Shown here: positions 21,523 through 21,762 of the stretch, one piece after another
How positions within the stretch are numbered: the first letter of the stretch is position 1
Layout: each line of letters begins with the position of its first letter
DNA from: Deltaproteobacteria bacterium
Lineage (GTDB): Bacteria > Desulfobacterota > Desulfuromonadia > Desulfuromonadales > Geopsychrobacteraceae
Length of the DNA stretch: 64,000 nucleotides
Reading direction: 5' to 3'
NCBI GenBank assembly: GCA_024276935.1
Contig: JAJRWH010000073.1
Span: forward strand, 1 to 64,000
Position numbers and translations under genes: made by a program
Notes under the pieces: generated by a model
Databases searched by the model: none
Told to the model about the DNA's origin: nothing
Seen by the model: the letters and a program-made list of their open reading frames with translations, nothing else

Positions 21523-21762
21523 AAGTCAGCATTCGCTCCGCTTCGAATCCCCCAAAAGGAGTATCCGATTATTGTTATGGCGGAGAGGGGGGGATTCGGT
21601 CACTTTGTCGTCGCCATCACGGCGACTCCGGCGTAACCTCCCCTACTCTCGCTGACGCCGACTTCCTGTCGGCTTTTCTGACATTAAGTCAGCGCTCGCT
21701 CCGCTTCGAATCCCCCCAAAAGGAGTATCCGATTATTGTTATGGCGGAGAGGGGGGGATTCG
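21523..21762. repeat. Partial tandem repeat (period ~163-164 bp) that includes the 3' end of tRNA-Ser(GCT)
   Basis: CGCTCCGCTTCGAATCCCCC..AAAAGGAGTATCCGATTATTGTTATGGCGGAGAGGGGGGGATTCG occurs at ~21534-21598 and ~21697-21762. Confidence 0.95.

What the first reader, a model, noticed from the sequence alone, without database searches (positions are those of the whole stretch)
21599..21711. Shared Z/X core folds into three consecutive perfect stem-loops with 5-nt loops
In the tRNA-Ser(GCT) copy the arms are GTCGCC-ATCAC-GGCGAC (21610-21626), GCCGAC-TTCCT-GTCGGC (21657-21673) and CTGAC-ATTAA-GTCAG (21678-21692). The same three hairpins recur in the tRNA-Ser(TGA) copy at ~21945-22060 with only two or so substitutions, none in a stem. 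Regular pentaloops and stem conservation suggest a structured RNA, a processing signal or a protein-binding array.
Basis: seen in the sequence. Interest (0 to 1): 0.65.

Follow-up and report, generated by a model that had tools for sequence, protein, structure and literature searches.

The report
Structured repeat copied behind tRNA genes
The three hairpins belong to a small, strongly folded, gene-less repeat found across a bacterial phylum only directly behind transfer-RNA (and tmRNA) genes, where each copy carries a duplicate of its host tRNA's tail and an inverted piece of it; it looks like a miniature mobile element that uses tRNA ends as its landing site.

Summary
The hairpins are real and exactly where stated. 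They are part of a ~118-nt element on the minus strand, immediately 3' of tRNA-Ser(GCT) and tRNA-Ser(TGA). The two cores differ by 2 bases, both outside the three hairpin stems.

The family is dispersed: 22 of 41 relatives by blastn, 73 of 277 genomes of the class and 15 of 297 of a phylum sample with a covariance model. Every copy examined lies 3' of a tRNA or tmRNA end, in tRNA orientation.

Anatomy: tRNA-CCA; spacer; left arm equal to the reverse complement of the host's own T-loop/T-stem; ~106-nt core; copy of the host tRNA 3' end. The left arm changes with the host tRNA. An unbiased covariation scan over 62 copies recovers two of the three hairpins plus closing stems; the third is supported by stem swaps in distant copies. 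G-T outnumbers A-C 53:7 in core helices, so the tRNA-sense strand folds. Congeners show empty sites, and cores are shared across different tRNAs of a genome.

Best reading: a non-autonomous mobile element targeting tRNA 3' ends. Its anatomy matches the E. coli tyrT/RtT repeats, but it is not an RtT member by covariance model. The moving enzyme and any RNA function are unknown.

The parts
21742..21829 (-). tRNA-Ser(GCT), host of copy 1; its 3' end (C56-CCA) is 21742-21762
   Evidence: ARAGORN and Rfam; duplicated 3' end located
21718..21741 (-). spacer between tRNA-Ser(GCT) CCA and the left arm, no terminator
21705..21717 (-). left arm of copy 1 (GGGGGGATTCGAA on the minus strand), reverse complement of the host T-loop/T-stem 3' half
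   Evidence: inverted repeat I1
21599..21704 (-). structured core of copy 1
   Evidence: covariance model hit 150.5 bits for 21589-21716; covariation
21678..21692 (-). hairpin H1 (CTGAC-TTAAT-GTCAG on the minus strand)
   Evidence: alternative stems CTGCC/GGCAG and GTCC/GGAC in distant copies
21657..21673 (-). hairpin H2 (GCCGAC-AGGAA-GTCGGC)
   Evidence: 3 pairs with two-sided changes
21610..21626 (-). hairpin H3 (GTCGCC-GTGAT-GGCGAC), the best covarying hairpin
   Evidence: 5 of 6 pairs with two-sided changes
21633..21637 (-). 5' strand of closing stem P2 enclosing H3 (pairs with 21599-21603)
   Evidence: columns 82-86 with 117-121, covariation
21599..21603 (-). 3' strand of closing stem P2
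21578..21598 (-). displaced copy of the tRNA-Ser(GCT) 3' end (CGAATCCCCCCCTCTCCGCCA), 21/21 identical
21523..21577 (-). start of a second, truncated unit: repeated spacer, left arm and first bases of H1
   Evidence: repeat families D2 and D4
22087..22172 (-). tRNA-Ser(TGA), host of copy 2; its 3' end is 22087-22107
22064..22086 (-). spacer between tRNA-Ser(TGA) CCA and the left arm, unrelated to the spacer of copy 1
22052..22063 (-). left arm of copy 2 (GCAGGATTCGAA), 11/12 to the reverse complement of its own host T-arm
21946..22051 (-). structured core of copy 2
   Evidence: covariance model hit 145.7 bits for 21936-22063
21925..21945 (-). displaced copy of the tRNA-Ser(TGA) 3' end (CGAATCCTACCTCCTCCGCCA), 21/21 identical
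21863..21924 (-). start of a second, truncated unit in the TGA copy, ending after hairpin H1
   Evidence: repeat family D3

Best explanation
The hairpins are the folded core of a small (~118 nt, ~160 bp with spacer), gene-less, non-autonomous mobile element that inserts at the 3' ends of tRNA and tmRNA genes. Shown from sequence: the element duplicates the tRNA 3' end from T-loop position C56 through CCA, so the tRNA stays intact and a displaced copy marks the far end; the left arm is an inverted copy of the host T-arm; the core is conserved by compensatory change; sites are empty in congeners; cores are shared between different tRNA genes of one genome. Inferred: a trans-acting enzyme recognises the folded tRNA-sense strand of the core (as ssDNA or RNA) and joins it at the T-loop of a new tRNA gene; the left arm is then made, or kept, complementary to the neighbouring tRNA by replication template switching (quasi-palindrome correction). 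The enzyme is not identified.
For: Every copy examined lies 3' of a tRNA or tmRNA end in tRNA orientation; tmRNA hosts point to the T-arm/acceptor rather than an anticodon as the target. Left arm to displaced tRNA copy is nearly fixed at 113-120 nt. Left arm against own host: 11.0/12 matches versus 9.28 permuted (maximum 9.69); distal copy 20.1/21 versus 14.1 permuted. Unusual T-loops are tracked (Gln, Leu, Pro-CGG, SeC, tmRNA). Empty sites: L119, L120, L123 against filled L106, L117 of the same genus. The three Ser cores of the window genome are 98-99% identical while its Leu and Glu cores are 76-84%; nearest neighbours lie in the same genome 18 times (10 of them at a different tRNA) versus 3.9 expected, and the core tree mixes tRNA types within genera. 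Tandem arrays of up to 3-4 units, and truncated copies. Covariation score 0.395 versus 0.150 shuffled and at most 0.078 slid.
Against: No transposition intermediate, circle or autonomous relative was found. No enzyme correlates: Y1 transposase genes occur with and without the element and none was found in G009 (7 copies, 94% complete); reverse transcriptase (PF00078) is absent from element-rich G011, G015, G018 and G022. Conventional site-specific insertion does not explain the host-matched left arm. Core sharing within a genome could be gene conversion rather than transposition. Conservation of the fold across classes of a phylum is long for a purely selfish repeat.
Confidence: 0.52

Rival explanations
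1. A functional RNA released from the tRNA precursor (an RtT-like trailer RNA): the core is co-transcribed with the tRNA, cut off during 3' processing and acts as a structured small RNA or binds a protein.
For: Sense-strand structure with G-T over A-C 53:7 in core helices; two conserved tandem G.A motifs typical of RNA internal loops (60/62 and about 51/62 copies); short-spacer copies (33) have no terminator between tRNA and element; E. coli tyrT/RtT, with the same anatomy, is described as RNA released from the transcript (PMC4986893, citing Bosl and Kersten 1991).
Against: 17 of 23 long-spacer copies sit behind an intrinsic terminator; presence varies between congeners and copy number from 0 to about 12; truncated copies occur; the set of host tRNAs differs between genomes.
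Confidence: 0.25
2. Attachment-site remnant or micro-island of a T-loop-specific integrase: the element is the minimal att-bearing remainder of a tRNA-targeted genomic island, moved in trans by an island integrase.
For: Direct repeat from the T-loop through CCA with the displaced copy at the far end is the hallmark of tDNA islands (Islander, PMC4383910) and T-loop crossover is known (mycobacteriophage Ms6, PMC1762012); empty sites; elements also found at displaced tRNA/tmRNA 3' halves that look like island ends.
Against: No integrase in the element; the sequence next to the crossover is not conserved as a core site but covaries inside P2 (GTGGGC, GTGACC, GTGGCC); a host-matched inverted left arm is not part of such islands; many different tRNA species share one core.
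Confidence: 0.12
3. Retro-mechanism with the tRNA 3' end as primer or template: the left arm is a primer-binding-like complement of the tRNA 3' end and the distal copy is reverse-transcribed tRNA sequence.
For: Left arm complementary to the host tRNA 3' end, in some copies over most of the acceptor strand too (L031 second copy, L254, L255); in some long-spacer copies (L023, L028, L056) the duplicated stretch reaches to about the end of the terminator, as if from a transcript 3' end; sense-strand fold.
Against: No reverse transcriptase found in several element-rich, nearly complete genomes; the one CCA hint (L243) is confounded by a dispersed repeat beginning with CCA.
Confidence: 0.07
4. Simple local tandem duplications of tRNA 3' ends homogenised by recombination, with no mobility.
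For: Tandem arrays and repeated spacers in the window and in L037, L074, L087.
Against: The same core occurs at unrelated loci and at at least 12 tRNA species plus tmRNA with different arms and spacers; empty sites in congeners.
Confidence: 0.04

Closest known systems
RtT RNA / tyrT 178-bp repeats of E. coli (Rfam RF00391, rttR/tpr)
   Same: Same anatomy on inspection: unit starts inside the tRNA 3' end, spacer after CCA, arm GGGGAAGGAT (reverse complement of the tRNA-Tyr T-arm ATCCTTCCCC), structured region, then AATCCTTCCCCCACCACCA again; tandem copies.
   Different: No match between models: RtT not reported in the window copies at E up to 5; model R1 gives 5.5 bits, E 0.25 on tyrT. In MG1655 only the tyrT/tyrV locus was looked at; here the element is at many tRNAs and tmRNA with an arm that follows each host.
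tRNA/tmRNA-targeted genomic islands (tDNA islands; T-loop crossover, e.g. phage Ms6)
   Same: Target gene restored, displaced 3' fragment at the far end, empty sites, T-loop boundary.
   Different: No genes and no integrase, about 160 bp, conserved folded core, inverted host-matched arm, many tRNA species per genome.
REP/BIME repeats mobilised by RAYT (Y1 transposases)
   Same: Short non-coding palindromic repeats, multicopy, strand-specific hairpins.
   Different: Confined to tRNA ends with duplication of the tRNA 3' end; Y1 gene presence does not follow element presence.
Integron attC cassettes
   Same: Working analogy only: structure rather than sequence conserved, one strand folded, arrays of units sharing the target sequence.
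   Different: No cassette gene, no integrase seen, target is a tRNA T-arm; not tested as a member.

Membership tests
RtT RNA (RF00391) | Match to the Rfam covariance model above the gathering score | tested here: not met
   Not reported in window copies at E up to 5; the same method finds three RtT units in E. coli tyrT at 112-137 bits
RtT RNA (RF00391) | Unit lies directly 3' of a tRNA and starts with the tRNA 3' end | tested here: met
RtT RNA (RF00391) | Arm complementary to the host T-arm upstream of the core (seen in tyrT, not a published criterion) | tested here: met
   Seen in E. coli tyrT and in this family
RtT RNA (RF00391) | Released as a stable RNA during tRNA processing | not testable with these tools
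   No expression data
tDNA genomic islands | Displaced tRNA 3' fragment at the distal end, target gene intact | tested here: met
   Distal copy 20.1/21 identical on average; tRNAs called intact by ARAGORN
tDNA genomic islands | Integrase gene in the element | tested here: not met
   About 118 nt between left arm and distal copy, too short for an integrase gene
tDNA genomic islands | Empty target sites in relatives | tested here: met
   L119, L120, L123 empty; L106, L117 filled, same genus
REP/RAYT elements | RAYT-type Y1 transposase present with the elements | tested here: inconclusive
   Y1_Tnp in most genomes with and without the element; none found in G009 with 7 copies, a 94%-complete draft
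Retroelements | Reverse transcriptase in carrying genomes | tested here: not met
   PF00078 not found in element-rich G011, G015, G016, G018, G022; a lost or unrelated RT is not excluded
Integron attC sites | R'/R'' boxes and an IntI integrase | not tested
   Only the anatomy was compared

The most novel reading that the evidence does not exclude
A phylum-wide class of miniature elements that move only their folded core between tRNA and tmRNA genes, acquiring at each landing an inverted copy of the host's T-arm and a direct copy of its 3' end, by a copying mechanism unlike known transposons or integrases; the E. coli tyrT/RtT repeats would be an independent or very distant branch of the same class.
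Probability: 0.25. Interest if true: 0.85.

Novelty: new variant of a known kind. Interest (0 to 1): 0.62.

Why it matters
The E. coli tyrT repeats are the one well-known case of this anatomy. This family shows it as a recurrent, dispersed element in another phylum, at about a dozen tRNA species and tmRNA, with a strongly covarying structure. If it is mobile, it is a minimal tRNA-end-targeting element whose host-matched arm records a copying step that standard integrases do not make. It gives a clean comparative test bed (empty and filled tRNA loci, arrays, decayed copies) for how RtT-like repeats arise, and it is a caution for annotators: displaced tRNA 3' ends and island calls at tRNA genes can come from these repeats.

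Tried and rejected
Rfam: only tRNAs above threshold, with weak sX4 and permuted tmRNA hits overlapping the tRNA. RtT homology by covariance model: not supported. Reverse transcriptase and Y1 transposase as partner genes: no correlation. CCA in a distal copy (L243) as proof of an RNA intermediate: rejected, because a dispersed repeat beginning with CCA follows it. Selection on pairing of left arm with the displaced tRNA copy: not supported, since at 20 of 20 informative positions the left arm matches the functional tRNA and not the displaced copy, and the arm stem shows no G-T/A-C bias (20:21). Single-sequence minimum-energy fold of the middle region: not used, because covariation does not support it. 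Protein-coding reading (ORF 21849-22166): not pursued; copies differ by 1-2 nt indels in loops. Viral contigs: no exact match to two core patterns. RtT distribution in enterobacteria could not be searched; the Bosl and Kersten paper is not held. Geobacter and Pelobacter genome papers mention multicopy intergenic sequences, but supplements could not be read.

Full report
OBSERVATION. The three hairpins are exactly at the coordinates given, and recur in the second copy. The 113-nt cores of the two copies differ at two bases, both outside the three hairpin stems. Folding is stronger than in 200 dinucleotide shuffles (z -5.9 and -5.3). The relevant strand is the minus strand, that of the tRNAs.

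ANATOMY. Read on the minus strand, each copy is: tRNA-Ser ending in CCA; a 23-24 nt spacer; a left arm that is the reverse complement of the host's T-loop and T-stem 3' strand (GGGGGGATTCGAA for tRNA-Ser(GCT), GCAGGATTCGAA for tRNA-Ser(TGA)); a ~106-nt core with H1, H2, H3 and a closing stem P2; then a 21-nt copy of the tRNA 3' end from C56 to CCA; then a truncated second unit. The spacers of the two copies are unrelated although the cores are 98% identical. The arm bases that differ between the two copies are those at which the two host tRNAs differ, and they follow the host except for one base in the left arm of the TGA copy.

FAMILY. blastn with the core found it in 22 of 41 relatives. I fetched 80 loci. 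In 80 of 103 hits ARAGORN calls a tRNA upstream on the same strand. By reading, the remaining hits lie behind tmRNA (L022, L093), behind truncated tRNA or tmRNA 3' ends that look like the far ends of genomic islands (for example L031, L036, L050, L065, L066), at contig edges, or have lost their left part but keep a tRNA-like right end (L033, L034, L083). Hosts include Ser (four isoacceptors), Gln, Glu, Pro, Leu, Arg, Ala and SeC, and in more distant genomes Asn and Lys. Model R1, built from 62 copies, finds the family in 73 of 277 genomes of the class, all but one in the window's own order, and in 15 of 297 genomes of a phylum sample, 11 of them outside the class, with the same anatomy. Named carriers are Desulfuromonadales such as Pelovirga terrestris and Desulfuromusa; one hit is in a MAG labelled Chloroflexi and may be misbinned.

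HOST TRACKING. Left arm against own host: 11.02 of 12 matches, against 9.28 when hosts are permuted, with a maximum of 9.69 in 5000 permutations. The displaced copy matches its own tRNA at 20.06 of 21, against 14.08 permuted. Tracking includes unusual T-loops: all 5 GGGATCGAA (Gln, Ala), all 4 AGACTCGAA (Leu) and all 4 GGATTTGAA hosts have the matching arm. Where displaced copy and tRNA differ within the first nine bases, the arm agrees with the tRNA at 20 of 20 positions. So pairing of the arm with the displaced copy is not what is being maintained. In some more distant copies the arm is the reverse complement of most of the tRNA 3' end (L254, L255).

STRUCTURE. A scan of all column pairs, with no structure assumed, put its strongest covariation in one nested set: the arm stem P1, P2, H2, H3 and a short stem P3 with tandem G.A pairs. 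Counting on the named structure: 93.7% of cells paired, covariation score 0.395 against 0.150 for shuffles and at most 0.078 for slid partners. H1 hardly varies within A1 and is supported instead by whole-stem replacements in distant copies (CTGCC/GGCAG, GTCC/GGAC). The structure was named after the scan of the same alignment, so the counts lean towards it, and related sequences are counted repeatedly; the margins are large. In core helices G-T outnumbers A-C 53 to 7 (39 to 7 without the poorly paired position 84-119), while in the arm stem it is 20 to 21 (Fisher p = 0.0005 for 39:7 against 20:21, not corrected for shared ancestry). This says the strand that folds is the tRNA-sense strand, and it argues against mutation bias alone, since the arm stem lies in the same surroundings. 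Hairpin-perfecting by replication template switching (PMC8794818) could contribute to covariation but would not by itself give this bias.

MOBILITY. In one genus the Ser(TGA) and Ser(GCT) loci are empty in L119, L120 and L123, and filled in L106 (TGA) and L117 (GCT). The filled sites have the insert between the tRNA CCA and the ancestral downstream sequence, with the displaced tRNA 3' copy on the downstream side. Cores in the window genome: Ser(GCT), Ser(TGA) and Ser(GGA), the last on another contig, are 98-99% identical; Leu and Glu cores are 76-84% to these and to each other. Nearest neighbours are in the same genome 18 times (10 at a different tRNA) against 3.9 expected, and at the same tRNA 25 times against 5.7. 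So there is both inheritance at a given tRNA and sharing across tRNAs; the tree mixes tRNA types within genera. Transposition and gene conversion are not separated by this.

TRANSCRIPTION. Two spacer classes: 33 short (20-31 nt) without a terminator and 23 long (43-66 nt), of which at least 17 carry an intrinsic terminator before the element. A function that requires co-transcription would therefore fail, or depend on read-through, at most long-spacer loci.

PARTNER ENZYMES. Reverse transcriptase is missing from several element-rich genomes (G011, G015, G018, G022) and Y1 transposase does not follow element presence. These are draft genomes, so absence is weak evidence. Viral contigs gave no exact match to two core patterns.

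COMPARISON. The E. coli tyrT/tyrV repeats (RtT, RF00391) have the same anatomy, including an arm GGGGAAGGAT complementary to the tRNA-Tyr T-arm. The models do not recognise each other, so membership in RtT is not claimed; common descent or convergence is open. tDNA islands share the duplicated tRNA 3' end (PMC4383910), and T-loop crossover is known for phage Ms6 (PMC1762012), but those elements carry an integrase and no inverted host arm. That quasi-palindromes are corrected by template switching is known (PMC7202029) and is offered here only as an inferred way to keep the arm matched to the tRNA.

VERDICT. A real, conserved, structured repeat family targeted to tRNA and tmRNA 3' ends, best read as a non-autonomous mobile element with RtT-like anatomy. 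The mechanism of movement and any RNA function remain inferred. An earlier listing as an unnamed multicopy sequence in the Pelobacter carbinolicus supplement (PMC3543383) is possible and could not be checked.

Noticed in passing
L102 (E. coli K-12 NC_000913.3 1286900-1287800): The tyrT/tyrV RtT repeats carry an upstream arm complementary to the tRNA-Tyr T-arm, the same anatomy as the family here; I did not find this remarked on in the papers read.
   Followed up: partly
L086 (G016:C17:22800-24800), L021, L026, L040, L048: Behind tRNA-Ser(GGA) elements lies another dispersed repeat (CATCTGCGGCGTT...TCAACGACGTACC...TACGCCTTATTC...); in G016 a Y1 transposase gene (C17:24116-24478) sits about 260 bp after the element, suggesting a REP/RAYT system nearby.
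   Followed up: no
L031, L035, L036, L050, L065, L066, L095, L100: Elements sit behind truncated tRNA-Pro, SeC or tmRNA 3' halves, apparently the far ends of genomic islands; tRNA-Pro fragments start near the anticodon loop.
   Followed up: partly
L243 (G403, tRNA-Ala GGC): The functional tRNA gene lacks encoded CCA while the displaced copy has CCA; confounded by a dispersed repeat beginning with CCATGCTTC in that genome.
   Followed up: partly
L252, L254, L255, L263: In distant families the left arm is the reverse complement of most of the tRNA 3' end including acceptor bases, longer than in the window's order.
   Followed up: partly
window 23572-23835: A tandem repeat of a short unit (translated as repeated LGVGRWA / QRPTPNA in the ORF list) upstream of serS.
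   Followed up: no
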